DNA of 42,123 nt from positions 1 to 42,123 of the forward strand of contig NZ_LR594661.1 of assembly GCF_901827155.1 (NCBI RefSeq), in the 5' to 3' direction. The notes beneath the pieces are model-generated. The model had not been told where the DNA came from. It saw only the letters and a program-made list of their open reading frames with translations, and did not search any database. Both the position numbers and the translations under genes were made by a program. Origin of the DNA: Variovorax sp. PBL-H6. Lineage in GTDB: Bacteria; Pseudomonadota; Gammaproteobacteria; Burkholderiales; Burkholderiaceae_C. Positions within the stretch are counted from its first letter, which is position 1. Every line of letters begins with the position of its first letter. This document shows, piece after piece, positions 4,384 through 39,635 of the stretch.

Positions 4384-4425
4384 TGGTGACAGGCAGATCC
4401 ACCAGGTTGGTGGATTCTGTCACCA
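4384..4425 (+). repeat. 42-bp TGGTGAC/GTCACCA element P1
   Basis: It starts with the base after the relaxase stop codon. The outer arms pair over 9 bp (TGGTGACAG/CTGTCACCA) and an inner pair ATCCACC/GGTGGAT is also present, making this the most symmetric copy. It carries the interior motif AGATCCACCAGGTTGG shared with P2, P7 and P20. Confidence 0.85.
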
Positions 4426-4452
4426 ACGGCCTTGACACGATTTCGCTTATAA

Positions 4453-4562
4453 GGGGTCTCCTCGTTTTCAGTGCAATAAGTGACGGTACGCAAAGCTAGC
4501 ACTGGCGCGGGGGTGGTCTGGGTAGACCGTTGATTTCATTGACTTTCCTGTTCGCTTTGTAA
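4453..4562 (+). repeat. Left long inverted repeat of IS1071
   Basis: It matches the reverse complement of 7547-7656, with a handful of mismatches confined to the inner part (for example GGTCTGGGTAGACC against GGTGTTGGTAGATC). Such long repeats distinguish IS1071 from ordinary Tn3 elements, which have 38-bp ends. Confidence 0.88.
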
Positions 4563-4597
4563 ACGGGTATGGTGGCCTCCCACTTTTGAGGTTCACG

Positions 4598-7513
4598 ATG
4601 CAGGGTTGGCACACAACGTTTTTGGGGATGCGTGGGCTCCCCCGCGATATCAGCGACTTCGAGATGAAGGCATTTTTCACCTTCGATGGTGCCGAGCGCG
4701 ACGCAATCAATGCACGCCGAGGTGATTCCCACAAGCTTGGTCTGGCGCTCCATATTGGTTTCCTGCGCATGAGTGGGCGTTTGCTCGGTGCCTTTCGGGT
4801 AATTCCAGTAGCCTTGTGGCGCCACCTTGGCAACGAGCTTGGCATTGCAGCACCAGAAGTCGCCTCGCTGAGAGCCATGTATGAACGCGGGCGCACGCTA
4901 TTCGATCACCAACAAGTAGCCTGCACGGTCCTTGGATTCCAGTGGATGAGCGAGCACCAGCGCCGCTCACTGGTACGTGAACTGCGCGACGAAGTGGCGC
5001 GCTGCGCCGACCGCGATCAGCTACTCGTGCGGGCGCGTCAATGGCTGTACAAGAACAAGCTGGTGATCGTGCACGAGCGGGCAATTCGGACACTGATTGC
5101 GGCGGCACTTGCCCAGCTTGAAGTTGAAACAGGCACCGCCATCGCCGCCAGCGTTGATCCAGCAACACTTGATCGCTGGCGAGCCTCAGTTTCAGAGCTG
5201 CGCCCAGATGGACAAACCCAGCAGAGTTGGCTATGGGCTGCACCGGCGAAACACTCAACCCGCCAAATCAGCGAGGTACTGGAGCGCATCGACCTGCTTT
5301 ACACGCTGGACGTTCATAAGCACCTGGCAGACATCCCCGATCTCATCTTGCGCCGCTACGCGCGCCGACTTGTCTCCAGGCCGCCCTCAGCCGGAGCCAA
5401 GATCAAAGAGCCAGCGCGCACCGTGGAGGTCGCATGCTTTCTTCGGTATTGCCTGTTCACCACCACAGACCAGTTGATCCTTATGGTGCAGCGCCGGATC
5501 GCCGATCTGTGGCGTCAGGCTGCCGCCGATGTCCCCGCTACCGTCAATTGGGCCGCAATGTACAAAACGCTGCTCGGCGAACTTGTTGCCTTGAGCGCGC
5601 AAGGTGCGGTGCCAGATGCTGAGTTGCGTGCCCGTCTTGAAGCCTTGATCACCGAAACCCAGAAACGCAAACCACCGAGCAGGGCCTCCCTGGTCCGCGA
5701 GGGATTGATTGATGGAATTCGCCCCGTGCGGTCGTTGCTCGTCGCCATTGCAAAGCTGCCCTGGCAGGCCACCGGCGAGCATCCTGCCATCGAGTACCTT
5801 GCCAAGCTGCAAGCTTTATATCTCAAAGGATCCAGAAAGCTGCCAGTTGAAGTGGTGGCACCAAGTCTGGGAATGATCTGGCAGGTTTCGATCTCCAGCC
5901 CAGACCGGGAACGGGCGTTTCAGGCGTTGGAGGTGGCCACCCTGTTTGCCCTGCGCCGCGCGGTGCGCAATGGCTCGGTCTGGATTGAGCACAGCCTGAG
6001 CTTTCGGGGTCGTGCGCGCTTGTTCTTCACGGACGAGCGTTGGCAGGCAGAGTCCAAGAAACACTATGCCCGTCTATCGTTACCCAGCAAGGCTGCCACT
6101 TTCTTGAAGCCTTTGCTGGCCAGAGTAACTGCCGGTGTCGATGCGGTGGCCGCTGCAGCCCGCAGTGGCGTACTGCGCGTGGATGATGAACTCCATTTGT
6201 CGCCATTGCCCGCAGAGGACGAAGACCCAGAAGTGACCAAGCTGCGCGCGGCTTTGGATCACCGCATCGGTGAGGTTCAATTGCCGGAAGTGATTCTGGC
6301 CGTTGACGCCCAGGTGCGCTTTAGCTGGATCATGCTCGGACGTGAGCCGCGCTCTACCGACGAGCTGCTGATGGTCTATGCCGGCATCATGGCCCACGGC
6401 ACCAGTCTGACTGCGGTCGAATGCGCGCGCATGATTCCGCAATTGTCTGCCACCAGCATTCGCCAGGCCATGCGCTGGGCGCGGGACGAACGGCGTCTGA
6501 GCCAGGCCTGCCAGGCTGTGCTGGAATTCATGCAGCGACACCCGATTGCCGCCACCTGGGGGCGGTCCGATTTGGCATCTTCTGACATGATGACCATGGA
6601 GACCACCAAACGGGTGTGGCAAGCCCGGCTTGATCCTCGGCGCAACACACCTTCCATTGGAATCTACTCCCATGTAAAAGACCGGTGGGGCATCTTCCAT
6701 GCGCAGCCCTTTGTGCTCAATGAGCGCCAGGCGGGCGTGGCCATTGAAGGTGTCATCCGCCAAGAAAAGCTGGAGACCAGCCAGCTTGCTGTGGATACCC
6801 ATGGCTACACCGACTTTGCCATGTCACATGCCCGTTTGCTTGGTTTTGATCTTTGCCCGCGGTTGAAGGAACTCAAACAGCGCCACCTCTTTGTGCCACG
6901 CGGCACCAAAGTGCCCGCAGAAATCGCTGCGGTGTGCGAAGCCAATGTCGACGTCGCTTTGATCGAAAAGCATTGGGATAGTCTGGTGCACCTGGCAGCC
7001 TCGGTCATGAGCGGACATGCCAGTGCGGTGGCAGCTCTTGCGCGGTTCGGTTCTGCCGCCCAGGGCGATCCAATCTATGAGGCTGGCGTGCAATTGGGGC
7101 GGTTGCTGCGTACGGCGTTTTTGGCTGACTACTTTGTCAAGGACGCTTTCAGGAACGAGTTGCGCCGGGTGCTCAATCGGGGCGAGGCTGTTAACGCCCT
7201 CAAGCGCGCCATTTATACCGGCCGGATCAGCCCGGCGCAGGCCAAACGTGTCGATGAAATGCAGGCTGTGGCCGATGCGTTGAGCCTGATGGCCAACATC
7301 GTGATGGCGTGGAATACCTCACAGATGCAGGCGGTCCTGGATCGCTGGTCGAACCGCCGCCAGGTCATTCCACCGGAACTGATCGGGAAGATTGCGCCCA
7401 CCAGGCTGGAGAGCATCAACTTGCGGGGTGTGTTTCGCTTCCCGGTTGACCGCTATGCTGACCAAATCCTGCCTTCGCGGCCAAATGCATCGATAACTGG
7501 CACCAATGGATGA
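4598..7513 (+). CDS. tnpA: Tn3-family transposase of IS1071
   Basis: This 971-residue DDE transposase has an N-terminal DUF4158-like DNA-binding region and a C-terminal Tn3 transposase domain covering roughly residues 550-940. The first catalytic aspartate is most likely in EVILAVDAQVRFSWIMLG, and the second in AVDTHGYTDFAMSHARLLGF, a well-conserved stretch in Tn3-type enzymes. I take the ATG at 4598 (MQGWHTT) instead of the in-frame ATG four codons earlier because it gives the expected 971 residues. Its base composition is less GC-rich than the surrounding plasmid genes, as expected for an acquired element. It appears intact. Confidence 0.92.
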   Translation: MQGWHTTFLGMRGLPRDISDFEMKAFFTFDGAERDAINARRGDSHKLGLALHIGFLRMSGRLLGAFRVIPVALWRHLGNELGIAAPEVASLRAMYERGRTLFDHQQVACTVLGFQWMSEHQRRSLVRELRDEVARCADRDQLLVRARQWLYKNKLVIVHERAIRTLIAAALAQLEVETGTAIAASVDPATLDRWRASVSELRPDGQTQQSWLWAAPAKHSTRQISEVLERIDLLYTLDVHKHLADIPDLILRRYARRLVSRPPSAGAKIKEPARTVEVACFLRYCLFTTTDQLILMVQRRIADLWRQAAADVPATVNWAAMYKTLLGELVALSAQGAVPDAELRARLEALITETQKRKPPSRASLVREGLIDGIRPVRSLLVAIAKLPWQATGEHPAIEYLAKLQALYLKGSRKLPVEVVAPSLGMIWQVSISSPDRERAFQALEVATLFALRRAVRNGSVWIEHSLSFRGRARLFFTDERWQAESKKHYARLSLPSKAATFLKPLLARVTAGVDAVAAAARSGVLRVDDELHLSPLPAEDEDPEVTKLRAALDHRIGEVQLPEVILAVDAQVRFSWIMLGREPRSTDELLMVYAGIMAHGTSLTAVECARMIPQLSATSIRQAMRWARDERRLSQACQAVLEFMQRHPIAATWGRSDLASSDMMTMETTKRVWQARLDPRRNTPSIGIYSHVKDRWGIFHAQPFVLNERQAGVAIEGVIRQEKLETSQLAVDTHGYTDFAMSHARLLGFDLCPRLKELKQRHLFVPRGTKVPAEIAAVCEANVDVALIEKHWDSLVHLAASVMSGHASAVAALARFGSAAQGDPIYEAGVQLGRLLRTAFLADYFVKDAFRNELRRVLNRGEAVNALKRAIYTGRISPAQAKRVDEMQAVADALSLMANIVMAWNTSQMQAVLDRWSNRRQVIPPELIGKIAPTRLESINLRGVFRFPVDRYADQILPSRPNASITGTNG

Positions 7514-7546
7514 AACCGACCACGGTTTGACGCCACGAATCGCAGA

Positions 7547-7656
7547 TTTGAAAGTGAACAGGAAAGTCAATGAAATCAACGATCTACCAACACCACCTCC
7601 GCGCCAGTGCTAGCTTTTCGTACCGTCACTTATTGCACTGAAAACGAGGAGACCCC
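7547..7656 (-). repeat. Right long inverted repeat of IS1071
   Basis: This is the inverted partner of 4453-4562. Its outermost 27 bases are read in frame by the truncated trbM and supply its last residues and stop codon. Confidence 0.88.
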
Positions 7657-7866
7657 TTTCAGCGTGTCCGACAGCTTCTTGTGACTGATCGAGAAGTACC
7701 GCTTCAACGACGGAGCGCACTCGCTCGGCCGCGTGCCCGAAGACAAGCACAAGACGGCTTCGCACGCGAGGCGCACGTCGCCAGTGAAAAGGCCATCGTC
7801 GGCCTGGGCCGCCGTGGCGCTGAACATGCCCGCGAGCGCGAGCGGCAAAAGGGCGAGCTTCTTCAT
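7630..7866 (-). pseudogene. trbM: TrbM family gene truncated by IS1071
   Basis: The N-terminal part of a TrbM-family protein remains: a signal peptide (MKKLALLPLALAGMFSATAAQA) and then the family motif CEAVLCLSSGTRPSECAPSLKRYFSI. After about 70 residues the frame runs into the IS1071 terminal repeat at 7656 and ends with GVSSFSVQ. Family members are usually well over 150 residues, so more than half is gone. The missing 3' part is not found on the other side of IS1071. TrbM is a periplasmic accessory protein of conjugation. ATG 7866 has a good site GGAGG. It follows the OmpA-like lipoprotein gene in the same operon. The product is probably non-functional. Confidence 0.87.
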
Positions 7867-7879
7867 AGTCGATTCCTCC

Positions 7880-8440
7880 TTACTGGTTGAAAACCTCGAT
7901 TTCCACGCGGCGGTTCTGCGCGCGGCCAACGGCCGTGCCGCCTTCCGCTACATGGTCGCCACCCGACAGGTAGTTGACCGATACCTTCGTCGCGGGAACT
8001 CCACGGGCCACCAAGTAGTTCATGGCGGCTTGTGCGCGCTTGAGCGCGATACGCTCATCGCCAGCACTCGGGCGCTCGGCATCCGTGCGGCCCCTGACCT
8101 CGATCCGGCGAGCATTCGCCAGGAGCGGCAGAAGCTCGGCTTCCTGGGCCGCCGTGGGCTGGAAGTGTGCCGAGTTGAAAGGGAAGTGAACCGTGACCGT
8201 GTGCGAAACCGGCGCGGGCGGCGGTGCTGGATGCACGACGGCCGGCACTGCGGCCGGCCGGCGTTCCAGTTCTCGCACTCGTTGCTTCGTTTCGGCCAGA
8301 TCGGCCCGGAGGGACAGCACGGAGGCGGTTTCCGCGTCATTCACCGCCGTGCGGTTCGTGCCGTCCACGGTCGGCGGTTTAGGTGGCGTCGAGCACGCGG
8401 CAAGCATGGCGGCACAACTGATGATGACCAATCTACGCAT
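7880..8440 (-). CDS. OmpA-family outer-membrane lipoprotein
   Basis: This 186-residue lipoprotein begins MRRLVIISCAAMLAACS, a type II signal peptide with lipobox LAAC and predicted lipidated Cys16. A short coiled-coil-like segment (about 43-65, ADLAETKQRVRELE) precedes a Pro/Ala linker and a C-terminal OmpA-like peptidoglycan-binding domain, with VHFPFNSAHF, RRIEVRGRTDAE and AQNRRVEIEV as landmarks. Such proteins tie an envelope complex to the cell wall. Here it probably supports the conjugation channel. An operator-like sequence overlapping a TATAAT box lies 32-50 bases upstream (8472-8490), and the gene is followed by trbM. I reject upstream in-frame starts because they lie across that promoter. 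Confidence 0.88.
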   Translation of the reverse strand: MRRLVIISCAAMLAACSTPPKPPTVDGTNRTAVNDAETASVLSLRADLAETKQRVRELERRPAAVPAVVHPAPPPAPVSHTVTVHFPFNSAHFQPTAAQEAELLPLLANARRIEVRGRTDAERPSAGDERIALKRAQAAMNYLVARGVPATKVSVNYLSGGDHVAEGGTAVGRAQNRRVEIEVFNQ

Positions 8441-8471
8441 TTTGAACCCCTTAGTTGGTGACTTTTGCGAA

Positions 8472-8490: not shown

Positions 8491-8572
8491 TAGCGTTTGA
8501 GGATAGGCGCGGCGCTGAAATTGTCTTGCCCGACATGCGTCGAGCTGTCCAGGTCGGCCGACGTGCCGGCAT

Positions 8573-8614
8573 TGGTGACAAACAGATCCACCAGGTTGGA
8601 TGCGTTTGTCACCA
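8573..8614 (+). repeat. 42-bp element P2
   Basis: It has an 11-bp outer stem TGGTGACAAAC/GTTTGTCACCA and the interior AGATCCACCAGGTTGGATGC. It is identical to P7 except at positions 8 and 35, where both bases changed in a way that keeps the pair. Confidence 0.85.
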
Positions 8615-8640: not shown

Positions 8641-8682
8641 TGGTGACGGCCGCCGCGCCTGGCTGGGCTGGCCGTGTCACCA
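8641..8682 (+). repeat. 42-bp element P3
   Basis: Arms TGGTGACGGCC and GGCCGTGTCACCA; GC-rich interior. Second of four copies packed into 8573-8800. Confidence 0.8.
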
Positions 8683-8694
8683 CGTCCGGGCGAT

Positions 8695-8736
8695 TGGTGA
8701 CGGATCTCGCCGGCGCCGGCGGCGGAACTGTCACCA
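8695..8736 (+). repeat. 42-bp element P4
   Basis: The interior holds the palindrome CGCCGGCGCCGGCG, which also occurs in P18. Starts 13 bases after P3 ends. Confidence 0.82.
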
Positions 8737-8758: not shown

Positions 8759-8800
8759 TGGTGACATCGAGCGCGCATCGAGGCGGCCGCGGCGTCACCA
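8759..8800 (+). repeat. 42-bp element P5
   Basis: Arms TGGTGAC and GTCACCA with interior ATCGAGCGCGCATCGAGG, whose ATCGAG units recur in P14, P16, P17 and P21. Last of the 8573-8800 cluster. Confidence 0.8.
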
Positions 8801-14023: not shown

Positions 14024-14065
14024 TGGTGACAGGCCGACGACCTGGCCAGCTCGCCGGCGTCACCA
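14024..14065 (+). repeat. 42-bp element P6
   Basis: It begins 13 bases beyond the virD4 start codon, so it is in the 5' leader of virD4. The interior CTGGCCAGCTCGCCGGC is shared with P21 and, in part, P12 and P17. Confidence 0.85.
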
Positions 14066-14080: not shown

Positions 14081-14122
14081 TGGTGACGAACAGATCCACC
14101 AGGTTGGATGCGTTCGTCACCA
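14081..14122 (+). repeat. 42-bp element P7
   Basis: 11-bp outer stem TGGTGACGAAC/GTTCGTCACCA. Matches P2 in 40 of 42 positions, and the two differences are a compensating pair. Confidence 0.85.
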
Positions 14123-14185: not shown

Positions 14186-14227
14186 TGGCGACAGGCGCAG
14201 CTCCTCGATCGCGCGGGCCTGTCACCA
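14186..14227 (+). repeat. 42-bp element P8
   Basis: The left arm is the TGGCGAC variant and the right arm CCTGTCACCA. It ends six bases before the virB11 stop codon region at 14233. Confidence 0.82.
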
Positions 14228-19756: not shown

Positions 19757-19798
19757 TGGTGACGGGGCCGAGCTGGCCAGGTCGAAAAGTTGTCACCA
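19757..19798 (+). repeat. 42-bp element P9
   Basis: Lies between virB5 and eexN. Interior CCGAGCTGGCCAGGTCG; arms TGGTGAC and TTGTCACCA. Confidence 0.82.
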
Positions 19799-19803: not shown

Positions 19804-19845
19804 TGGTGACGCAAGACGCCGGCGAGATCCTCGCCGGCGTCACCA
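19804..19845 (+). repeat. 42-bp element P10
   Basis: Starts five bases after P9 and ends six bases before the virB5 stop. Includes CGCCGGCGAG..CTCGCCGGCG, a strong inner palindrome around GATC. Confidence 0.84.
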
Positions 19846-26298: not shown

Positions 26299-27063
26299 TC
26301 AGAAGACGATGGCCGAGCGCGCCGGCTGCGCCGGTTGCTCGCCCTGGCTGGCCTTCGCGTCATCCTTGGCGACAGTCAGATCCGCCGCGGCGGATGCGCC
26401 TGTCACCACGGGCTTGAGCTGCGCGGGCGCTTCGCTCGCCCGGCGCAGCAGCACCGGGGCATGATCGGCAGGCGGCCCATCGCTCGCGCCCTGGGCCGTC
26501 ACCTTGACCGGCCCGGAGCCGGCCGCCGTCACGCGCTGCGGGCGTGCTGCACCCGGCGCGATCGACGGAACGACCGGGATCGGCTTTGCCTCGACGTTGG
26601 CTTGCGCCAAGACCTTTTGCACATACGACGGCTCGCCGGCCTTGTCAGGCCGGAAGCCGCGCGTGAAGTTGCCCGAGTAGTAGCAGGAGAAGGCCGAGTG
26701 CAGCGCCCGTTGCCGGTCGCCCTCGGTGCGGGGCAAAGCCCGCGTGTAGCAGTCTTCGAGAATCTTCGAGCCGACGCGGATGTTCGCGCACGGCTCGAAG
26801 GCTTCTTCGTAGGTTAGGGAGTATTTCGGCAGGTTGTAGCGGTTGACCTGGGCAACCCCTACCGAGAAGTTCCAGCCAGCGGCTTCAAGAGCCTTGGCCG
26901 TCGCAACAGCTTCCGCTTGCGACTTGGGTTGACGTTGGAGCCTTCCGCCCACCACGCCGATGGCGTAGGGGTTGAAGCTCGATTCGACTTGCACGACGGC
27001 CGCCATCGTCTGCGGGGCCACCGTAGGGGCGCATTGCTGCGCCAAGACCATGAAATCCAGCAT
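26299..27063 (-). CDS. virB1: VirB1 lytic transglycosylase
   Basis: This 254-residue peptidoglycan-cutting enzyme opens the wall for the transfer channel. The SLT domain is N-terminal, with catalytic Glu27 in VVQVESSFNPYAIGVVGG and later SVGVAQVNRYNLPKY. There is no clear signal peptide; the first residues MLDFMVLAQQCAPTVAP may still direct export. The tail after about residue 160 is Pro/Ala-rich. Element P11 lies inside the coding end (26367-26408) and supplies residues around VVTGASAAADLTVAKDD. The start has GGGAG 8 bases upstream, and an operator lies at 27096-27114, so this is the first gene of the virB operon. Confidence 0.9.
   Translation of the reverse strand: MLDFMVLAQQCAPTVAPQTMAAVVQVESSFNPYAIGVVGGRLQRQPKSQAEAVATAKALEAAGWNFSVGVAQVNRYNLPKYSLTYEEAFEPCANIRVGSKILEDCYTRALPRTEGDRQRALHSAFSCYYSGNFTRGFRPDKAGEPSYVQKVLAQANVEAKPIPVVPSIAPGAARPQRVTAAGSGPVKVTAQGASDGPPADHAPVLLRRASEAPAQLKPVVTGASAAADLTVAKDDAKASQGEQPAQPARSAIVF
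26367..26408 (+). repeat. 42-bp element P11, inside the virB1 coding end
   Basis: TGGCGAC left arm, CTGTCACCA right arm, and an inner palindrome ATCCGCCGCGGCGGAT. One of two copies that are translated; here it reads antisense to virB1 without a stop. Confidence 0.84.
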
Positions 27064-27701: not shown

Positions 27702-27764
27702 CAGCGCCTCCGGCGCTGGACGGCCCAACTGGTGACAACTGGCATCACCAGGTGAGCGTCCACA

Positions 27765-27824
27765 GTCGCCAAATTGTAGCAAGTTGGCGACAGTTTGAGT
27801 AGCAAAGACCCGTTCGCGTCACCA
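27765..27824 (+). repeat. Inverted repeat and a degenerate 40-bp relative of the 42-bp elements
   Basis: GTCGCCAA (27765-27772) faces TTGGCGAC (27784-27791). The latter also starts a 40-bp stretch ending GTCACCA at 27824, which looks like a family member two bases short. A 21-bp mini-version TGGTGAC...ATCACCA occurs at 27730-27750. The remainder of 27702-27893 is GC-rich hairpin-forming DNA with no gene. Confidence 0.4.
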
Positions 27825-27893: not shown

Positions 27894-28518
27894 GGCGTCG
27901 AAGACGCCCTTTCCCCCACCCTGCCCAGGGCAGGAAGGGGGCGGTGTGTAGGCCCGCGCAGCGGGCAACCAGTCCATGCACACCGCGACACGTCGCCGTG
28001 CTGCACACAAGCCCGCAGACTGCCGCCACGTCGGCAGACTGCACACAGCCGGGCCGGCTGGTTCATGCACGCTGCCCCCGCCGCTGGCGGTGGAGAAAGG
28101 CGGCTTTGCCGCTACGCAGCCGGCGCGGCCGTCTGGTTGTGCCGCCTGCGTCGGCCGTAGGGCGCTCGCGTTCCGCGCCCGCCCTTGGTGGCATGTCGTC
28201 ATCGTCCGGTGGCGTTGCTCCACTGCGCACCTTTCGCCTGCCCTAGACGGTAGTCCAGCCATGCCGTCGCTCCAAGGGCCGGGCAAGCCCTGAAATCCTC
28301 ACCCGTTCGCACTCGCTGCGCTCGCTTGCGCTGCGGCTTCCGGTTTCTCCCTTTCCGCGCCGTCCTGTCCGGCCCACCTACGGGCAATCACGGCGAAAGG
28401 CACTCAGCGGAGCAAGGTTCAACACCACAGGAGAAATGCGACATGACTCACCAACAAGTTCAGTTTGAAAAGCCGGCTCAAGCATCTAGCAGAGCAGAGG
28501 TTGAACAGCAGAAAACCG
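27894..28518 (+). repeat. 625-bp direct repeat, copy A
   Basis: It is identical to 35679-36301 except for two single-base length differences, an extra A near 27935 and an extra C in a C-run near 28078. It begins with the palindrome GGCGTCGAAGACGCC, runs through about 550 bases of non-coding, hairpin-rich DNA with repeated CTGCACACA and GCAGACTG motifs, and ends inside the coding region after 25 codons of the downstream gene. Divergence downstream is abrupt. Confidence 0.93.
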
Positions 28519-30127: not shown

Positions 30128-30169
30128 TGGTGACGGCCGCAGCTCCTGGCCAGCTCGGCCGCGTCACCA
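30128..30169 (+). repeat. 42-bp element P12
   Basis: Nine bases after the stop of the preceding gene. Interior CTCCTGGCCAGCTCGGCCGC; followed by an A-run (CAAAAAAATTTTG) before the operator at 30224. Confidence 0.84.
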
Positions 30170-30726: not shown

Positions 30727-31154
30727 TGCGGGCCGCGTCCACCACGACCAGGAAGCCGGCCGGCTTGTGGCGCTACTCGCTGCGCTGGAGCCTGCCGCAC
30801 AAGCCCTGCCCTGGCCCGCTGGAACTGGCGGCGGTCGAGGTTCCGGCCGGCGACCAGTGCCCGCCCGTGGTGGCCGATCTTTGGAAGCCCGGCACCGGCT
30901 ATGCCGTGTGCGTTGACTTCCCGCAGCCGGCCGAAATCCGCCGCTGGAGCGACGAGCGCAAGGCGCAGGCACGCCGCCGCAATCTCGCGCGCCGCGTCGA
31001 GAAGGCCGCGCCCTTGTTCGCCGACGAGCTGATCGCCCGCGAGCTGGAGGCGCGGCCCGACTACTTCGCGGGCAAGAACCCGCATCGAGGCTTGGCGACA
31101 GACACGCCGCCAGGCCTCGATGCTTCCGTCACCAACGAAAGGGCAACGCAATGA
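30723..31154 (+). CDS. Unknown plasmid protein whose C-terminus is read from a 42-bp element
   Basis: This 143-residue basic protein is not recognised by function. Landmarks are GLWRYSLRWSLPHKPCPGPL, then ELAAVEVPAGDQCPPVVADL, then a helix SDERKAQARRRNLARRVEKA. I recall similar proteins from other plasmids, with no established role. Its start overlaps the preceding stop (ATGA). The last 20 or so residues (GLATDTPPGLDASVTNERAT) are encoded largely by element P13, so the element has extended or replaced the natural end. The stop overlaps the next ATG. Confidence 0.72.
   Translation: MMRAASTTTRKPAGLWRYSLRWSLPHKPCPGPLELAAVEVPAGDQCPPVVADLWKPGTGYAVCVDFPQPAEIRRWSDERKAQARRRNLARRVEKAAPLFADELIARELEARPDYFAGKNPHRGLATDTPPGLDASVTNERATQ
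31093..31134 (+). repeat. 42-bp element P13, inside a coding end
   Basis: TGGCGAC left arm, GTCACCA right arm, interior CGCCGCCAGGCCTCGATGC. Translated as part of the 30723-31154 gene. Confidence 0.8.
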
Positions 31155-31583: not shown

Positions 31584-31859
31584 ATGAACATGCACAGCAT
31601 GACCCTTGAACAGCTCCGCGCCACGCACGAGACGGGCGGCCTTGCCGCCGTCACGCTCGAAGCGCACGGGAAAGGCTTCTACCTCGTGGCCGATTCCCGC
31701 TCGGGCGGGCGCGTGGTGCTGGTGCGCTACTCCGACCGCAAGCCGCGCCTGTTCGTTGAGCCGGGCACGGCCTTGAAGCTGCTGCGCGAAATCGGCTTCG
31801 GCACGGCCAAGGTGAACATGGCCGGCTGGCAACCCGACCAACAACAGGCCGACGTGTAG
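31584..31859 (+). CDS. Small unknown protein, ParC-like by appearance
   Basis: This 91-residue protein reads MNMHSMTLEQLRATHETGGL, then AAVTLEAHGKGFYLVADSRS, then LLREIGFGTAKVNMAGWQPD. The layout, a helix, a glycine-rich beta sheet and a closing helix, reminds me of small plasmid proteins sometimes annotated as ParC or partition-associated. I could not verify this. A GAG-containing weak site precedes the ATG. It lies 10 bases after its neighbour. Confidence 0.66.
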   Translation: MNMHSMTLEQLRATHETGGLAAVTLEAHGKGFYLVADSRSGGRVVLVRYSDRKPRLFVEPGTALKLLREIGFGTAKVNMAGWQPDQQQADV

Positions 31860-32160: not shown

Positions 32161-32495
32161 AGACCTTCGCACGCTGGCTGCGCCGCAACATGCTGGTGCC
32201 CCTGCTGCTTGTCCTGGGGGCCGGCGCAGCCGCCACGATCTACCAGTCGATGGAAATCGACGCCCTGGGCTATCGCCAGTTGCAGAACGCCTACAAGACC
32301 GGCTCCAGCGCCTTCCAGGCGCGTGTCGCCGAGGCGATGCAGAACGGCACCGTGAGCCGTTGGGAACGCACCGCCCTGCTGCGGCAGTATTGGAGCGAGA
32401 GCCACGCCCTTGCGGTTGAGCTTGAAGTCGGAGAAATCGCCGCCGAGCGGCAGGCGCTGGCCGCACTGGTCGGCGGACAGGAGGGGCATTCATGA
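32157..32495 (+). CDS. Small membrane-anchored protein before repA
   Basis: This 112-residue protein has a basic start and a hydrophobic segment (NMLVPLLLVLGAGAAATIYQ, about 11-30). It is then a helical, Ala/Glu/Gln-rich soluble part to the end (LRQYWSESHALAVELEVGEI). Its topology is probably N-in with a cytoplasmic-to-periplasmic crossing. It overlaps repA by ATGA, so its translation may set repA expression. I do not recognise its family. Confidence 0.7.
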   Translation: MKTFARWLRRNMLVPLLLVLGAGAAATIYQSMEIDALGYRQLQNAYKTGSSAFQARVAEAMQNGTVSRWERTALLRQYWSESHALAVELEVGEIAAERQALAALVGGQEGHS

Positions 32496-33703
32496 GCAGA
32501 AAACCGACAACGACAGGGCGAACACGCGCCGCGCCGCCGTTCAATGAAACGGACTACCGCGATGCGCTCATGCGCGCAGGCATGAGCGAAGAAGACGCGG
32601 CCAGCCTCGCCCGACGCACGGCCGAGGCCCGCAAGGCATCGGCCGACGCTGCCGCGCCGGCCTCGGAACTCCTGGGCCTACCGTCCCCGGCCGACGAAGC
32701 GGCCTTCGAGTCCAGCGCGGCGGCCGGCACGCCGGCCAGCAACGCACCCGCGAAGAAGCTCGCGCGCACAGCGAAGGAGAAGCCGATTCGCGCCGTCTTC
32801 GACTACCGCAACGGCAAGATTCCCGAGCGCGTGCGCGACCTGATCGAAGCCCACCTTGCCATCGAGCGCGAGGACGCCAAGAGCGCCGGCACGCTAGGCT
32901 TCATGACTCGCGCGCTCGCCATCGCTACGCTGCCGCACAGGCGGCAGGACGAATACCGCTTCGTTCGCAAGAACGGCGACTTCGTGCTCACGATGATGAC
33001 GGCCCACCCCGAAGGGCTTCCCTTCGGGACGGTGCCGCGCATGCTGCTGACCTGGGTTTGCACGGAAGCCGTGCAAACCGGCGAGCGCGTCTTGCACCTG
33101 GGCAATTCGCTGGCCGAGTATCTGGACGAGCTGGGCATGCACAGCTCGGGCGGCAAGCGCGGAGACATCACGCGCCTGAAACACGCCATGACGACGCTTT
33201 TCAGCGCCGTCATTTCGTGCCACTACGAGGGGGCCGATTCGTGGGCCTTGTCCAACGTCCTGCTGGCTGATCGCGTCGAGTGGTGGCAACCGCAGAACCC
33301 CGAGCAGGCCGGGCAATGGCAATCGAATCTCCAGCTTTCCGAACCGTTCTTCAAGGAGTGCATCGAGCACCCCTTGCCGGTTGACGTTCGCGCGATGCGC
33401 TCGCTCGGAAAGTCGCCCCTGGCGCTGGACATCTATGTGTGGCTGTCGCACCGCATGAGCTACTTGTCGCGCCGCACGACCATTCCCTGGGTGTCGCTCG
33501 CCGGCCAGTTCGGTGCCGGCTACGCGATGGACGAACAGGGCTTGCGCGACTTCAAGCGCGCCTTCCTGCGCGAGTTGAAGCATGTGATGGTGGTCTATCC
33601 CGAGGCGAAAGTCGCCGATTCGCCGAACGGGCTTGTGCTGTACCCAAGCCCTCCGCATGTGCCGTTCAGCAGCGCGCCTAAGCAGCGCCGGCTTCCGCTA
33701 TGA
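32492..33703 (+). CDS. repA: RepA replication initiator (RepA_C type)
   Basis: This 403-residue initiator belongs to the plasmid-encoded RepA family. The Ala-rich N-terminal 90 residues look disordered. The conserved part begins at about 105, and includes FVLTMMTAHPEGLPFGTVPR followed by LLTWVCTEAVQTGERVLHLG, then DIYVWLSHRMSYLSRRTTIP, which is typical of this family. It should bind the iterons at oriV (40687-40813) and recruit host proteins. The start ATG overlaps the upstream gene, and the stop overlaps the nuclease gene ATG. It lies about 7 kb from the origin, so it acts in trans. The 32-kb separation from transfer genes keeps it in a different module. Confidence 0.9.
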   Translation: MSRKPTTTGRTRAAPPFNETDYRDALMRAGMSEEDAASLARRTAEARKASADAAAPASELLGLPSPADEAAFESSAAAGTPASNAPAKKLARTAKEKPIRAVFDYRNGKIPERVRDLIEAHLAIEREDAKSAGTLGFMTRALAIATLPHRRQDEYRFVRKNGDFVLTMMTAHPEGLPFGTVPRMLLTWVCTEAVQTGERVLHLGNSLAEYLDELGMHSSGGKRGDITRLKHAMTTLFSAVISCHYEGADSWALSNVLLADRVEWWQPQNPEQAGQWQSNLQLSEPFFKECIEHPLPVDVRAMRSLGKSPLALDIYVWLSHRMSYLSRRTTIPWVSLAGQFGAGYAMDEQGLRDFKRAFLRELKHVMVVYPEAKVADSPNGLVLYPSPPHVPFSSAPKQRRLPL

Positions 33704-35265: not shown

Positions 35266-35307
35266 TGGCGACAGGCCCGCGCGATCGAGGCGCTGCGGCT
35301 GTCACCA
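35266..35307 (+). repeat. 42-bp element P14
   Basis: TGGCGACAGGC left end, GGCTGTCACCA right end, interior CGCGCGATCGAGGCGCTG. First of five copies within 400 bases. Confidence 0.82.
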
Positions 35308-35457: not shown

Positions 35458-35499
35458 TGGTGACACCGCGGCCGACCAGGTGCGCGGCCGATGTCACCA
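35458..35499 (+). repeat. 42-bp element P15
   Basis: Arms TGGTGAC and GTCACCA; interior CGCGGCCGACCAGGTGCGCG with a CGCGGCC/GGCCGCG-like symmetry. Confidence 0.82.
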
Positions 35500-35509
35500 T
35501 CGGCCAGTC

Positions 35510-35551
35510 TGGTGACAGGCAGATCCATCGAGCTGGATTCGCCCGTCACCA
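35510..35551 (+). repeat. 42-bp element P16
   Basis: Interior AGATCCATCGAGCTGGAT combines the AGATCC motif of P1, P2, P7 and P20 with the ATCGAGCTGG motif of P17 and P21, as if it were a hybrid of two subfamilies. Confidence 0.85.
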
Positions 35552-35560
35552 TCCCCAAGA

Positions 35561-35602
35561 TGGCGACACGCCATCGAGCTGGCCAGCTCGGCCGCGTCAC
35601 CA
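35561..35602 (+). repeat. 42-bp element P17
   Basis: TGGCGAC left arm; interior ATCGAGCTGGCCAGCTCGGC nearly the same as in P21. Confidence 0.85.
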
Positions 35603-35618
35603 ACGATTCCCCTTCATG

Positions 35619-35660
35619 TGGTGACAGATCCCGCCGGCGCCGGCGGGATGTTCGTCACCA
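35619..35660 (+). repeat. 42-bp element P18
   Basis: Inner palindrome ATCCCGCCGGCGCCGGCGGG is the strongest in the family. Ends 18 bases before the 625-bp repeat copy B. Confidence 0.84.
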
Positions 35661-35678
35661 ACAAGCCCGACCGCCTTC

Positions 35679-36301
35679 GGCGTCGAAGACGCCCTTTCCC
35701 CCACCCTGCCCAGGGCAGGAGGGGGCGGTGTGTAGGCCCGCGCAGCGGGCAACCAGTCCATGCACACCGCGACACGTCGCCGTGCTGCACACAAGCCCGC
35801 AGACTGCCGCCACGTCGGCAGACTGCACACAGCCGGGCCGGCTGGTTCATGCACGCTGCCCCGCCGCTGGCGGTGGAGAAAGGCGGCTTTGCCGCTACGC
35901 AGCCGGCGCGGCCGTCTGGTTGTGCCGCCTGCGTCGGCCGTAGGGCGCTCGCGTTCCGCGCCCGCCCTTGGTGGCATGTCGTCATCGTCCGGTGGCGTTG
36001 CTCCACTGCGCACCTTTCGCCTGCCCTAGACGGTAGTCCAGCCATGCCGTCGCTCCAAGGGCCGGGCAAGCCCTGAAATCCTCACCCGTTCGCACTCGCT
36101 GCGCTCGCTTGCGCTGCGGCTTCCGGTTTCTCCCTTTCCGCGCCGTCCTGTCCGGCCCACCTACGGGCAATCACGGCGAAAGGCACTCAGCGGAGCAAGG
36201 TTCAACACCACAGGAGAAATGCGACATGACTCACCAACAAGTTCAGTTTGAAAAGCCGGCTCAAGCATCTAGCAGAGCAGAGGTTGAACAGCAGAAAACC
36301 G
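35679..36301 (+). repeat. 625-bp direct repeat, copy B (623 bp)
   Basis: The partner of 27894-28518 lies 7.2 kb away in the same orientation. It carries the same hairpin-rich leader, the same AGGAG start region and the same first 25 codons, and then breaks into a different coding sequence at 36302. Recombination between the copies would delete or loop out 7.8 kb including repA. Confidence 0.93.
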
Positions 36302-36543
36302 GGGGAATGAAGCCGATGAAAAACAAGGTAATGGCGTGGGTGGACGTGCTGCCGGGCGTGGAAGCGACGGGGCTTCAGGCCAAGCGTGACGACATCGCCG
36401 AGCTGATGGCCGAGGCGGCCGAGCTGACCCGCAAAGCCGAGGAACTGCGCAGCCGGGCCTATTTCGCCGCGTGCAGCCTCGAAGGCGAAGCCCGCAGCCG
36501 CTGGACGCTGGAGCAGATCGACGCAGCCAAGCGCAACGCCTGA
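36226..36543 (+). CDS. Unknown protein with shared N-terminal tag (second copy)
   Basis: The 105-residue frame begins with the same 25 residues as the gene at 28443 and then reads GGMKPMKNKVMAWVDVLPGV, followed by a helical domain (AELMAEAAELTRKAEELRSR). An internal start at 36316 (MKNKVMAW) has GGGGGA 9 bases upstream and would give a 75-residue protein without the tag. The original gene may have begun there, with the tag acquired when the leader was duplicated. No function recognised. The gene at 36604 follows in the same unit. Confidence 0.72.
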   Translation: MTHQQVQFEKPAQASSRAEVEQQKTGGMKPMKNKVMAWVDVLPGVEATGLQAKRDDIAELMAEAAELTRKAEELRSRAYFAACSLEGEARSRWTLEQIDAAKRNA

Positions 36544-36603
36544 CAACTTCCCGGAGTGCCCCAGGCGGGGCGCTCCCCTTCTCAACTACCAGGAGCAAAG
36601 ACC

Positions 36604-37410
36604 ATGAACGCATACGAACAGAAGCAAGCCGCCCGCAAGGCCCGTTACGAGGAACGCGCCGAGCAGGCCAGCGCCGAGAGCGCGAGCACCTACAACCGCG
36701 CCCGAGACATGGCCCAGGCGATCCCCTTCGGCCAGCCGATCCTTGTCGGCCATCACAGCGAGACGCGCGACCGCAACTATCGTGACCGCATCCATACCAC
36801 CTATGGCAAAGCCTTCGCCCTGCAAGACAAGGCCAAGCACTACGAGCAGAAAGCGGCGAGCGTGGGCACTGGCGGCATTTCGAGTGACGACCCGGACGCC
36901 ATCGAGAAGCTGCGCGCCGAGCTGGCGAACGTCGAGCAGGCCCAGGAGCGCATGAAGGCCGCGAACAAGGCCATTCGCACCCACAAGACCGAGGAAACAC
37001 GCATTGCCGCACTGGTGGCCCAGGGTTTGACCGAGGCCCAGGCGGCCGAGCTGCTGAAACCGGACTTCGCGGGCCGCGTCGGCTTCCCGTCCTACGCCTT
37101 GAGCAACAACAACGCGAACGCCCGCCGCATCGCTGGCCGCATCGCCGAGCTGGAGAAGCGCCGCCAGCGTGTCGATGTAGAGCAGGAGGCCGAGGGCTAC
37201 ACCTACCGCGAGGACACCGAGGAAAACCGCGTCATGTTCGTGTTCCCCGGCAAGCCCGACGAGGCCACGCGCGCCCTGTTGAAGCGCCACGCCTTCAAGT
37301 GGTCGCCGTCCCGTGGTGCCTGGGTTCGCCAACTGAACAACGCCGGCATTTGGGCCGGCCAGGAAGTGAAAAAAGCCCTGAATGCGCTTACCAAAGTTGG
37401 TGACGTGTAA
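36604..37410 (+). CDS. DUF3560 domain protein
   Basis: This 268-residue protein has a DUF3560-like layout. The N-terminal helical part is ERAEQASAESASTYNRARDM, then IPFGQPILVGHHSETRDRNY, then a coiled-coil region, and a C-terminal beta domain, EENRVMFVFPGKPDEATRAL, then LLKRHAFKWSPSRGAWVRQL. DUF3560 proteins are common on plasmids of Proteobacteria; the function is not known. The ATG has AGGAG 11 bases upstream. It is the second gene behind copy B of the leader. The stop is three bases before the next operator. Confidence 0.85.
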   Translation: MNAYEQKQAARKARYEERAEQASAESASTYNRARDMAQAIPFGQPILVGHHSETRDRNYRDRIHTTYGKAFALQDKAKHYEQKAASVGTGGISSDDPDAIEKLRAELANVEQAQERMKAANKAIRTHKTEETRIAALVAQGLTEAQAAELLKPDFAGRVGFPSYALSNNNANARRIAGRIAELEKRRQRVDVEQEAEGYTYREDTEENRVMFVFPGKPDEATRALLKRHAFKWSPSRGAWVRQLNNAGIWAGQEVKKALNALTKVGDV

Positions 37411-37413
37411 TAG

Positions 37414-37432
37414 CCAATCTGGTATATTTTGG
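37414..37432 (+). promoter_or_regulatory. 19-bp operator and promoter for the 37497-38396 genes
   Basis: CCAATCTGGTATATTTTGG, with TATATT as a likely -10 box and TGACGT at 37401-37406 a possible -35 with 16-base spacing. It starts three bases after the stop of the DUF3560 gene. Confidence 0.68.
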
Positions 37433-37452
37433 ACTAGGCGCAGTGTCCAATA

Positions 37453-37476
37453 GGAAGGCCGGGAGCCCGGCCTTCC
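37453..37476 (+). other. Strong hairpin in the 5' leader of the 37497 gene
   Basis: GGAAGGCCGGG pairs with CCCGGCCTTCC across a 2-4-base loop, 20 bases before the start codon and ahead of the AAAGGAGG site. There is no T-run, so it is not a plain terminator. It could stabilise the message or restrict translation. Confidence 0.55.
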
Positions 37477-37496
37477 CATCCTGAAAGGAGGATGAC

Positions 37497-37679
37497 ATGC
37501 GAATCATCGACGACCTGATCGTGAAGACTGCAACCGCAATCCTGCGCGGCGTCATGGCGGTTGGAGCTGGCCTTGTCTATGTCCAGTTTTTCGCCCTGAC
37601 CGTCGCCGTTTCGATGGTCGGCACCACCGCCCTGGCGGTGATTCTCGCCGCTGCCAAGGCGGCCATTTTCGGAGGTTGA
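37497..37679 (+). CDS. Small inner-membrane protein of unknown function
   Basis: This 60-residue protein, MRIIDDLIVKTATAILRGVM and onward, has one or two hydrophobic helices (VMAVGAGLVYVQFFALTVAV, and GTTALAVILAAAKAAIFGG). It has an excellent ribosome binding site, AAAGGAGG, six bases before the ATG. It is the first gene behind the operator at 37414. Small hydrophobic proteins in this position might be part of a toxin or an exclusion system, but no motif supports that. Confidence 0.72.
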   Translation: MRIIDDLIVKTATAILRGVMAVGAGLVYVQFFALTVAVSMVGTTALAVILAAAKAAIFGG

Positions 37680-37682
37680 ACA

Positions 37683-38078
37683 ATGGCAACGAAGAAGGCG
37701 CACACCGCCGAGCTGATGAAGCTGGCCGGAGAGCTGCCCGCACTTATCGAGGGATTGGAAGCGGACATTGCCGCCGTGTCCGCTCGCATGGCCGAGCTGA
37801 AAAAAGCCGGCCTTGTGTACGCAAGCGAGCACTGGCGCAAGGACGCGAACGACGAGCCGAAATACTTCTATCTGCTGTATCCGCAGAAGCACGGAGAGCC
37901 GCGCCGCCGCGACTACATCGGATGCGATGCGGCCAAGATTGCCGAAGCCCGCGCCGGCATCGCTCGGGCCAAGGAGTACGACGAGCTGGCCGCCCGCCTG
38001 TCCAGCCTGTCGGGCCGCGTCCACCACGTCGCCGGCACGCTGCAAGACGCCCGCCGCTACCTCACCAGCAAACGCTAA
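37683..38078 (+). CDS. Unknown protein with coiled-coil halves
   Basis: This 131-residue protein has two helical regions (LPALIEGLEADIAAVSARMA and IAEARAGIARAKEYDELAAR) around a short aromatic-rich centre (KYFYLLYPQKHGEPRRRDYI). No family recognised. It starts three bases after the membrane-protein stop, with GGAGG before the ATG, so it is translated with it. Confidence 0.7.
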   Translation: MATKKAHTAELMKLAGELPALIEGLEADIAAVSARMAELKKAGLVYASEHWRKDANDEPKYFYLLYPQKHGEPRRRDYIGCDAAKIAEARAGIARAKEYDELAARLSSLSGRVHHVAGTLQDARRYLTSKR

Positions 38079-38102
38079 CCCCCGCCACGGAGGCAACGAC
38101 CC

Positions 38103-38396
38103 ATGACCACCACCATGACCCTGCCCGATGGATTCACCGCCAAGGCGCTGGACGCCGCCGCGTCCGCGCTCGATGCCGTCGCGGCCGGCCTGCCCTTCCA
38201 GGTCGATGACCTGATCGCCGGAGCGATGGCGCTCGAATGGATGACGACCAACACCACGCAGGCGGCACAGACCTATGACCTGCTGCACCGTGTCCGCGTC
38301 CTCGTGAACGGCCGAGGCTTCGCCCGGACGACCGAGGGGCGCGCAGAAGCTGGCCGGCTGGTGTCGATGGTGCGCGCCCTGCGGGCCGAGCACTGA
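38103..38396 (+). CDS. Small helical protein of unknown function
   Basis: This 97-residue protein is Ala-rich and probably helical throughout, MTTTMTLPDGFTAKALDAAA, then AMALEWMTTNTTQAAQTYDL. No motif recognised. It starts 24 bases after the previous stop with GGAGG. A terminator follows within 10 bases, so it closes this three-gene unit. Confidence 0.68.
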   Translation: MTTTMTLPDGFTAKALDAAASALDAVAAGLPFQVDDLIAGAMALEWMTTNTTQAAQTYDLLHRVRVLVNGRGFARTTEGRAEAGRLVSMVRALRAEH

Positions 38397-38405
38397 CCCC
38401 CCACC

Positions 38406-38430
38406 GGCCGGGCAACCCCCGGCCATTTTT
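38406..38430 (+). terminator. Terminator before kfrA
   Basis: Stem GGCCGGG/CCCGGCC with a five-base loop and a following ATTTTT run, directly after the 38103-38396 gene. Confidence 0.85.
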
Positions 38431-38443
38431 ACCCCTTGCGCGG

Positions 38444-38466
38444 TAATAATAGTAATAGTATTATTA
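38444..38466 (+). promoter_or_regulatory. Palindromic operator upstream of kfrA
   Basis: TAATAATA and TATTATTA are 8-bp inverted arms separated by 7 bases, in an AT-rich island in an otherwise GC-rich plasmid. It lies 30 bases before kfrA. KfrA proteins repress their own gene in IncP and IncU plasmids, so autoregulation here is the simplest reading. Confidence 0.65.
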
Positions 38467-38496
38467 CGACTACAACGACGAAAGGAGCGCCGAGTC

Positions 38497-39468
38497 ATGG
38501 CACTGAACCAGGAAATCAAAGAACGCATCTTTGCCGCCGCCGATGAACTGCACGCGGCCAGCCCGAACGGCGAGTTCCCGAACGTCGAAGCCGTTCGCCA
38601 ACTCAGCCGCGCCGGCATGAACAACGTGGTCGAGGCCATGAAGGAATGGCGCGCCAAGCAGCGCAAGCAAGTGCAGGCCGTCCGCGAGCCGCTGCCGGCA
38701 GAGCTGCACGGCGTCTTGCAGACAGCCGGGCAAAGCCTTTGGGAGACGGCGCAGCAACTGGCGAACGAATCGCTAGAGGCCGCGCGGGCCGCCTTCGAGG
38801 CCGAGAAAACCGACCTCACCGAGCTATCGGCGCAGCAGTCGGCCGCCTTCGAGGCGCAGACGGGAGAGCTGGAAGCCGCCCAGGCCCGCATTGTCGAGCT
38901 GGAAGCCCAGGCCGCCGCCGCCATCGAGCAGCAGCATAAGCAAGCCGGCGAGCTGGCCGAGCTGCGCACGCAGCACGAAGACAGCCAGCGCCGCGCCACC
39001 CTGGCCGAGCAGAAGGCCCAGGAGACGGAGCACCGGGCGGCCGAGCTACGCGCCGAGCTGGATCGAGCGCACCAGGACGCCGACCGCTTGCGCCAAGAAC
39101 GCGACGAGGCCAAGGCCCGCCGCGATCAAGCCGACGTGCGCGCCGAGGAAGCCGAAGGCGAGCGCGACGACGCCCTGCGCCAACTGGCGGCCGGCAATGC
39201 CGAGCTGGCCGGCCTGCGCGCGAAGATGACCGCCGAGGCCGAGCAACACGCCGAGCAACGCAAGCGCGCGGCCGAAGAAGTTCACCGCAGCGCCGAACGC
39301 ATGACCAAGGCCGAGAGCGAGCGCGACAAAGCCCGCGATGCCGCCGCCACGGCCCGCGAGGACGCGGCGAAGCTGCGCGGCGAGCTGGAGGCCGTCAAGA
39401 CGCAGAACGCCGCCCTGCTGGCCGCCTTGAAGCCCGCAGCGCAGTCGAAGCGCCCGCCGAAGGCTTGA
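38497..39468 (+). CDS. kfrA: KfrA-type coiled-coil DNA-binding protein
   Basis: This 323-residue protein has an N-terminal KfrA DNA-binding domain (about 1-60: IKERIFAAADELHAASPNGE, then FPNVEAVRQLSRAGMNNVVE). A continuous coiled coil of about 240 residues follows, rich in Ala, Glu, Gln and Arg. KfrA is a repressor and a filament-forming partition aid in related plasmids. It is controlled by the palindrome at 38444-38466 and has GAAAGGAG before its ATG. Elements P19-P21 lie between it and the primase gene. Confidence 0.92.
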   Translation: MALNQEIKERIFAAADELHAASPNGEFPNVEAVRQLSRAGMNNVVEAMKEWRAKQRKQVQAVREPLPAELHGVLQTAGQSLWETAQQLANESLEAARAAFEAEKTDLTELSAQQSAAFEAQTGELEAAQARIVELEAQAAAAIEQQHKQAGELAELRTQHEDSQRRATLAEQKAQETEHRAAELRAELDRAHQDADRLRQERDEAKARRDQADVRAEEAEGERDDALRQLAAGNAELAGLRAKMTAEAEQHAEQRKRAAEEVHRSAERMTKAESERDKARDAAATAREDAAKLRGELEAVKTQNAALLAALKPAAQSKRPPKA

Positions 39469-39478
39469 CCTTCGCCAT

Positions 39479-39520
39479 TGGTGACGCGATCGCGGCCAGG
39501 CCCGGGCGGCCGCGTCACCA
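39479..39520 (+). repeat. 42-bp element P19
   Basis: Ten bases after the kfrA stop. Arms TGGTGACGCG and CGCGTCACCA give a 10-bp stem. Confidence 0.84.
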
Positions 39521-39536
39521 ATCGAACCCGGCCGCG

Positions 39537-39578
39537 TGGTGACAGGAAGATCCACCAGGTTGGCCAACTTTGTCACCA
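39537..39578 (+). repeat. 42-bp element P20
   Basis: Interior AGATCCACCAGGTTGG as in P1, P2 and P7; right arm CTTTGTCACCA. Confidence 0.85.
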
Positions 39579-39593
39579 ATGGCCCCGCCGTAG

Positions 39594-39635
39594 TGGTGAC
39601 AGCGCATCGAGCTGGCCAGCTCGCCGGCGTCACCA
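39594..39635 (+). repeat. 42-bp element P21
   Basis: Interior ATCGAGCTGGCCAGCTCGCC. Ends 15 bases before the primase start codon, just ahead of its AAGGAG site. Confidence 0.85.

What the first reader, a model, noticed from the sequence alone, without database searches (positions are those of the whole stretch)
4384..39635. Family of 21 dispersed elements, each exactly 42 bp, with conserved ends and variable middles
Copies start at 4384, 8573, 8641, 8695, 8759, 14024, 14081, 14186, 19757, 19804, 26367, 30128, 31093, 35266, 35458, 35510, 35561, 35619, 39479, 39537 and 39594. Each starts TGGYGAC, ends GTCACCA and is 42 bases from first to last. The right arm is invariant in all 21, and the left arm differs only at its fourth base. 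The middles vary but share modules such as AGATCCACCAGG, ATCGAGCTGGCCAGCTCG and CGCCGGCG. A fixed length of four helical turns with a constant end pair suggests a protein that contacts both ends on one face of DNA, or a tiny mobilised unit, and not a chance hairpin. Nearly all are between genes, in clusters of up to five. I know of no named family like this, though I could not search.
Basis: seen in the sequence. Interest (0 to 1): 0.92.

Follow-up and report, generated by a model that had tools for sequence, protein, structure and literature searches.

The report
Fixed-length 42-bp plasmid DNA sites
A large family of short DNA sites, each 42 letters long with the same two ends and a conserved middle, is scattered through a group of bacterial plasmids but was not found in the host chromosome, and looks like a protein-recognised site at which plasmid pieces have been exchanged.

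Summary
Observation confirmed: all 21 copies are where stated; a 22nd (27730) and a 40-bp relative (27785) were missed. The window is a whole 42,123-bp PromA-gamma-type plasmid contig; all 22 copies in the 6.87-Mb genome lie on it. Over the window and 16 plasmid loci, box pairs occur 249 times at 42 bp, 12 at 40, 2 at 41, at most twice at other spacings from 14 to 69; simulations give none at 42. An ortholog test shows a tripartite site: both boxes (less base 4) and a central core resist change. Mismatch patterns argue against an mRNA hairpin. Half-sites recur at unrelated loci; one site (41 of 42 bases) ends two unrelated recombinase genes; 13 of 16 backbone recombinase genes end at a site, against 32 of 379 genes. 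In 11 PromA-type loci the 40-bp pair lies 6 bases before a -10-like hexamer at tra. Best reading: a protein-bound exchange (recombination-type) site, perhaps of the ParA-type serine recombinase; main rival: dispersed operator. No DNA-binding family searched for is in all 22 carriers; the partner is unidentified.

The parts
4384..4425 (.). 42-bp element, directly after the relaxase ORF
   Evidence: relaxase ORF 3298-4383
8573..8614 (.). 42-bp element, cluster of four
8641..8682 (.). 42-bp element, cluster of four
8695..8736 (.). 42-bp element, cluster of four
8759..8800 (.). 42-bp element, cluster of four
14024..14065 (.). 42-bp element between coupling-protein and virB11-type genes
14081..14122 (.). 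42-bp element between coupling-protein and virB11-type genes
14186..14227 (.). 42-bp element; its first 26 bases (reverse strand) are identical to those of pXap41 26505
19757..19798 (.). 42-bp element between virB5- and eex-type genes (place by the pSN1104-11 annotation)
19804..19845 (.). 42-bp element between virB5- and eex-type genes (place by the pSN1104-11 annotation)
26367..26408 (.). 42-bp element inside the 3' part of the lytic transglycosylase gene
27730..27771 (.). 22nd 42-bp element (right box GTCGCCA), just downstream of the -10-like hexamer of the tra operon
27785..27824 (.). 40-bp box pair just upstream of that hexamer; no conserved core
30128..30169 (.). 42-bp element
31093..31134 (.). 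42-bp element inside a small gene (by the pSN1104-11 annotation)
35266..35307 (.). 42-bp element, group of five
35458..35499 (.). 42-bp element, group of five
35510..35551 (.). 42-bp element, group of five
35561..35602 (.). 42-bp element, group of five
35619..35660 (.). 42-bp element, group of five; matches 82 plasmid records at E<=1
39479..39520 (.). 42-bp element just after kfrA (ORF 38497-39468)
39537..39578 (.). 42-bp element between kfrA and RepB-type primase gene
39594..39635 (.). 42-bp element; in a search with 191 bases only these 42 (or 43) bases matched pXap41 plasmids (90.5%) and a 21-kb Pseudomonas plasmid (93%)

Best explanation
The elements are tripartite DNA sites of fixed length: two inverted boxes (TGGYGACR ... 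YGTCRCCA) and a central core of about seven bases that comes in a few types (TGGCCA, ACCAGG, ATCGAG, GCCGGC, CTGCAG), read as double-stranded DNA by a protein assembly. SHOWN: fixed length; constraint on boxes and core; no copy in the own chromosome; reuse of halves at loci without flank homology; clean presence or absence of a whole element at one locus; frequent position at the ends of backbone serine-recombinase genes. INFERRED: they are junctions for recombination with exchange at or beside the core, so that a gene module can end inside or against an element and be replaced (comparable in use to XerCD pdif sites or integron attC sites). The likeliest enzyme is the ParA/resolvase-type small serine recombinase of these plasmids, acting in trans or lost in lineages such as this window. 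In PromA plasmids the same boxes at 40-bp spacing stand at the presumed tra promoter, so the box-binding protein may also affect tra transcription.
For: Length. Constraint: 161 ortholog alignments from 20 overlapping ordered plasmid pairs; box bases 1-4% changed (base 4 25%, base 39 9%), core bases 18-24 4-16%, other inner bases 11-38%, flanks 17-40%. Half reuse: of 479 distinct pairs with no flank homology and a shared prefix of at least 15 (bases 4 and 8 ignored), the prefix ends at 15-17 in 291, 18-22 in 39, 23-25 in 84, 26 or more in 65. 95 chimera-like pairs against 7, 4, 3, 2 and 1 in five shuffles. A 367-bp exact repeat of pTer331 starts and ends inside elements, as does the 368-bp one of pSFA231. 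pXap41 and MRSN 12121: element 41 of 42 identical at the stop codon of recombinases that are 30% identical, ungapped flanks 21/60 and 18/60. Recombinase link: 13 of 16 backbone recombinase genes end at an element (11 exact, 2 with one mismatch); 32 of 379 genes of 8 plasmids do. Clean absence next to a RelE-type gene in two relatives.
Against: No recombination was observed. A recombinase family member was found in 18 of 22 element-bearing replicons; pairwise search found none in the window, pSN0729-62 or pSN1104-11, and the own genome's three PF00239 genes lie on C1 and C2. The recombinases of L024, L014 and RA3 lack an adjacent element, and 8 further recombinases, which I judged transposon-borne or other with the result in view, have none (0 of 8). 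In one search, of 142 distinct pairs with one homologous flank, 16 share the near half but not the far half, 10 share both, 2 share only the far half and 47 share neither; 12 of the 16 are comparisons of one long repeat of PromA-beta plasmids, so there are about five independent cases. The corresponding repeats of pIPO2T and pYKBG020 have only one end inside an element. A deletion in pYKBG020 runs between outer boxes, not cores (by eye). Many co-resident copies would risk deletion if fully active, and palindromic cores such as TCGA give no direction. Selection for a few preferred halves could mimic shuffling.
Confidence: 0.38

Rival explanations
1. Dispersed operator or architectural sites: a regulator or nucleoid-type protein (plasmid- or host-encoded) bridges both boxes of each site, acts on tra and organises the plasmid, in the manner of the many KorB/KorA operators of IncP plasmids.
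For: In all 11 PromA-type loci inspected (11 of the 12 that carry the 40-bp pair) GTCRCCA lies exactly 6 bases before a -10-like hexamer (TATAAT, TACAAT, TAGAAT or TACAGT) upstream of tra, and in 7 of 11 a 42-bp element starts right after it. Boxes and core are conserved like protein contacts. 110 of 137 copies are wholly intergenic.
Against: No DNA-binding family among those profiled is common to all 22 element-bearing replicons; the widest is the Walker-type ParA ATPase, 21 of 22. A consensus promoter scan did not list this place, so the promoter is an alignment-based inference. Most copies lie within operons. Half reuse and an element with both flanks exchanged are not predicted. RA3, whose transfer module is shared with PromA plasmids (PMC9455977, passage), has no exact copy and only two unlike stretches at two mismatches.
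Confidence: 0.33
2. REP-like or MITE-like non-autonomous mobile repeats: 42-bp units inserted after stop codons and terminators by an enzyme acting in trans.
For: Intergenic with 3'-end bias: 31 of 137 within 20 bp of or across a stop, 10 of a start; clean presence/absence at one locus; an isolated 41/42 match between unrelated flanks.
Against: Copies differ in the middle yet keep length, unlike ordinary MITEs; no target duplication seen by eye in the one clean case; the only Y1-type (RAYT-like) transposase of the genome is on C1; no copies in the own chromosome.
Confidence: 0.15
3. mRNA or ssDNA hairpins (processing, stability or priming signals).
For: Boxes are inverted and interiors contain nested palindromes: 6-bp palindromes 1.29 per interior, shuffled 0.60, other DNA of five replicons 0.20 per same length; inner-shuffle folding z mean -0.95, median -0.67, -0.78 with dinucleotide shuffles.
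Against: Bases 4/39 and 8/35 vary independently; on the sense strand the C-A mismatch (23) outnumbers the T-G wobble (10), and of 81 copies 49 fold worse in sense than antisense and 30 better; no Rfam family matches the window.
Confidence: 0.06

Closest known systems
pdif modules (XerC/XerD sites of Acinetobacter plasmids; recalled, not searched)
   Same: Short plasmid sites bounding exchangeable modules, with two outer boxes and a core.
   Different: About 28 bp with Xer boxes and an A+T-rich spacer; here 42 bp, G+C-rich, boxes at the very ends.
Integron attC sites (recalled)
   Same: Two conserved 7-bp end boxes, variable imperfectly palindromic middle, position at gene 3' ends.
   Different: attC ends are RYYYAAC/GTTRRRY and lengths vary; no tyrosine recombinase was found on this plasmid.
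REP/BIME repeats (recalled)
   Same: Extragenic, clustered, often after stop codons.
   Different: REPs are chromosomal, not of one fixed length and tied to RAYT; here no chromosomal copy in the own genome and one length.
KorB/KorA operators of IncP plasmids (recalled)
   Same: Many dispersed sites on a broad-host-range plasmid, some at promoters.
   Different: Much shorter operators; the KorB family was detected in 15 of 22 carriers.
Long direct repeats of PromA-like plasmids (PMC4290620, passage seen)
   Same: Some long repeats of PromA plasmids contain or end in the elements.
   [quoted passage not shown] no 42-bp unit.
Resolvase site I of Tn3/gamma-delta (recalled)
   Same: Outer contacts plus a conserved centre, cognate gene alongside.
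   Different: 28 bp and usually upstream of the gene; here 42 bp, at the 3' end, many copies.

Membership tests
pdif / XerCD sites | about 28 bp with XerC and XerD boxes round an A+T-rich spacer | tested here: not met
   249 box pairs are 42 bp and cores are G+C-rich; the Xer definition is recalled
pdif / XerCD sites | module borders coincide with sites | tested here: inconclusive
   17 of 126 long-repeat ends lie in elements in both copies, a figure inflated by similarity among elements
integron attC | RYYYAAC/GTTRRRY ends | tested here: not met
   ends are TGGYGAC/GTCRCCA
integron attC | tyrosine integrase on the same replicon | tested here: not met
   10 PF00589 matches, all on C1 and C2
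REP/BIME | Y1 RAYT transposase on the same replicon | tested here: not met
   one PF01797 match, on C1
serine-recombinase crossover site | cognate recombinase gene adjacent | tested here: inconclusive
   13 of 16 backbone genes in relatives, 0 of 8 others; none on this plasmid
serine-recombinase crossover site | binding and strand exchange | not testable with these tools
   needs biochemistry
KorB/KfrA operator | cognate protein in every carrier | tested here: not met
   KorB family in 15 of 22, KfrA family in 12 of 22 by pairwise search
structured RNA | covarying stem | tested here: not met
   no Rfam match

The most novel reading that the evidence does not exclude
A module-exchange system not found in the papers I could search: a fixed 42-bp tripartite site with interchangeable halves and several core types, worked by plasmid serine recombinases, lets unrelated proteobacterial plasmids swap genes at their 3' ends and also sets tra promoter activity.
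Probability: 0.3. Interest if true: 0.88.

Novelty: new variant of a known kind. Interest (0 to 1): 0.72.

Why it matters
[quoted passage not shown] A widespread, strictly constrained site in their intergenic DNA implies an unrecognised protein that acts across plasmid families. If it is an exchange site, it would help explain how these backbones acquire, lose and replace genes; if an operator, it would reveal a regulator of their transfer operon. Both are directly testable with small constructs.

Tried and rejected
Small ~90-aa MTLEQLR protein (window 31584-31859) as partner: present in 16 of 16 replicons with three or more elements then in hand and not detected in RA3, but of 9 further plasmids picked because they carry it (about 170 records do) 5 have no element and 4 have 1, 2, 5 and 8, and genomes G194 (9 elements) and G283 (7) have no match to it. 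Dropped.

Helical phasing of cluster spacings: none (88 spacings, R 0.01-0.05). RNA families: no match. Viral contigs: two type-specific patterns, 0 hits each. Anti-restriction idea from the palindrome excess: noted, not pursued; palindromes may simply reflect dyad cores.

Literature: nine searches listed no paper that I recognised as describing a 42-bp element. (both box sequences) counted 608 papers, of which 20 were listed and none opened. Only an open-licence library is held; Schneiker 2001 (PMC97592) is not held, and Brown 2013, Van der Auwera 2009, Mela 2008 and Tauch 2002 were not looked up by id and did not appear in the listings, so mention there cannot be excluded. I recall that the Mela 2008 abstract speaks of short and long direct repeats in pTer331; that is recall. 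Seen as passages only: PMC7039861, PMC4290620, PMC7783346, PMC4175270, PMC9455977, PMC4619425, PMC6232296, PMC9499019.
Full report
CONTEXT. The window equals contig C3 (42,123 bp) of a 6.87-Mb, three-contig genome. It aligns at 99.1-99.6% to most of the PromA-gamma plasmid pSN1104-11, and the queried part 18000-42123 is 100% identical to a Variovorax PBS-H4 record. Pfam finds ParA, KorB, relaxase, coupling protein, a VirB-type set, topoisomerase, RepA, SNase, RadC, KleA, KfrA and RepB primase.

OBSERVATION. All 21 copies are present as described, with a 22nd at 27730 and a 40-bp pair at 27785. Neither the window nor the window plus 16 loci gives any 42-bp pair in Markov controls. Over these 17 sequences the spacing spectrum is 249 at 42 bp, 12 at 40, 2 at 41, otherwise at most 2 from 14 to 69. 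With L025 added and one mismatch allowed, 35 more fall at 42 bp and at most 8 at any other length from 36 to 48; the reversed-sequence control gives single cases only. The own chromosome has none.

DISTRIBUTION. Elements occur in pSB102, pIPO2T, pTer331, pMRAD02, pSFA231, pXap41 and in plasmids of Pseudomonas, Agrobacterium, Xanthomonas, Acidovorax, Enterobacter and Comamonas. One element matches 82 of 72,556 plasmid records at E<=1, 56 of them over at least 80% of its length; some weaker matches are surely chance. RA3 (IncU) has no exact copy. Of 299 genomes of the host family, the own one included, 105 have at least one pattern match, mostly one to four; counts of 7 or more occur in six (22, 22, 21, 18, 9, 7), and the matches listed for each of these lie on one contig, though for two of the six only the first matches were listed. 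A type-specific pattern scanned over 84,980 species genomes gave 25 stretches on 17 contigs, the longest 49,607 bases, all proteobacterial by title; many of these assemblies are fragmented, so this alone does not prove plasmid location. Two patterns gave nothing in viral contigs.

ANATOMY. The ortholog test took elements of one plasmid and read the aligned place in another, whether or not it still fitted the pattern: 161 alignments from 20 overlapping ordered pairs. Box bases changed in 1-4%, base 4 in 25%, base 39 in 9%, core bases 18-24 in 4-16%, the other inner bases in 11-38%, flanks in 17-40%. Gapped alignment may favour boxes somewhat. Several alignments show compensating insertions and deletions that leave 42 bp. 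Most copies also have R at 8 and Y at 35 (252 copies). Bases 4/39 and 8/35 vary independently, and sense-strand folding is slightly worse than antisense, so the boxes are best read as DNA. Interiors hold 6-bp palindromes at 1.29 per copy against 0.60 in shuffles and 0.20 elsewhere on five replicons.

POSITION. In eight annotated plasmids 110 of 137 copies are wholly intergenic, 19 inside annotated genes, 7 across a 3' end, 1 across a 5' end; 31 touch or lie within 20 bp of a stop and 10 of a start. Some directly follow terminator-like T-runs (by eye). In 11 of the 12 loci that carry the 40-bp pair, which were aligned by eye, the right box precedes a -10-like hexamer by exactly 6 bases, and in 7 of the 11 a 42-bp element begins right behind it. 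A consensus scan lists no promoter there.

EXCHANGE. Distinct elements at places with no flank homology share prefixes that stop before the core (291 of 479 pairs) or after it (149), seldom inside it (39). The trough is partly expected because the core is constrained, and the pairs are not independent, but agreement over 24 bases or more (bases 4 and 8 ignored) in 128 pairs, against 0.001 under base independence, points to reuse of halves. A 24-26-base half is identical in pXap41, the gamma plasmids and an Acidovorax plasmid. In pTer331 a 367-bp exact repeat starts and ends inside elements (positions 14 and 25), likewise in pSFA231 (17 and 29), but in pIPO2T and pYKBG020 only one end does; over all long repeats 17 of 126 ends lie in elements in both copies, a figure inflated by similarity among elements. 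pXap41 and MRSN 12121 carry the same element, 41 of 42 bases, at the stop codon of recombinases with 30% identity, with unlike 60-bp flanks on both sides (21/60 and 18/60 ungapped). Two relatives lack a whole element cleanly at a RelE-gene locus; 227 of 315 mapped flank pairs are exactly 42 bp apart there. Of 24 recombinase genes examined, 13 end at an element: 13 of 16 that I class as plasmid backbone, 0 of 8 others; the division is mine and was made with the result in view. Background is 32 of 379 genes. Cases within a clade are related by descent (two main clades, about 30% identical to each other), so the numbers are not independent.

PARTNER. Profiles built from 123 genes of four carriers found no DNA-binding family in all 22 carriers: ParA-type ATPase 21, small serine recombinase 18, RepA 17. 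Some carriers are draft contigs, so absences there are weak, and families outside those 123 genes were not tested. A host factor or a trans-acting recombinase is therefore possible.

CONCLUSION. A real, strictly constrained, plasmid-associated site family for which I found no description in the papers I could search. The exchange-site reading explains half reuse, discrete borders and recombinase linkage; the operator reading explains the tra arrangement best. Both may hold. Mechanism remains inferred.

Noticed in passing
window 4453-7656: A Tn3-family insertion (DDE_Tnp_Tn3 ORF 4586-7513, inverted ends 4451-4558/7551-7658; the name IS1071 rests on PMC7039861 passages and recall) replaces about 1.8 kb of the pSN1104-11 backbone, including an addiction module, one 42-bp element and part of traR.
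   Followed up: partly
window 27894-28518 and 35679-36301: A 625-bp direct repeat, 99.7% identical, near but not containing elements.
   Followed up: no
window 31584-31859: Small MTLEQLR protein; in several plasmids the same domain is fused to a RelB-type antitoxin part beside RelE/ParE toxin genes.
   Followed up: partly
five replicons outside elements: 6-bp palindromes occur at 0.20 per 21 positions, which may reflect restriction avoidance; the expectation was not computed.
   Followed up: no
L017 (RA3), 3' end of recombinase 32316-32885: A short TGGCGAGATTGTCGCCA palindrome stands where relatives carry an element; perhaps a collapsed copy.
   Followed up: no
L002 2200-2230: A 31-bp pair that looks like a 42-bp element shortened by 11 bp, about one helical turn.
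   Followed up: no
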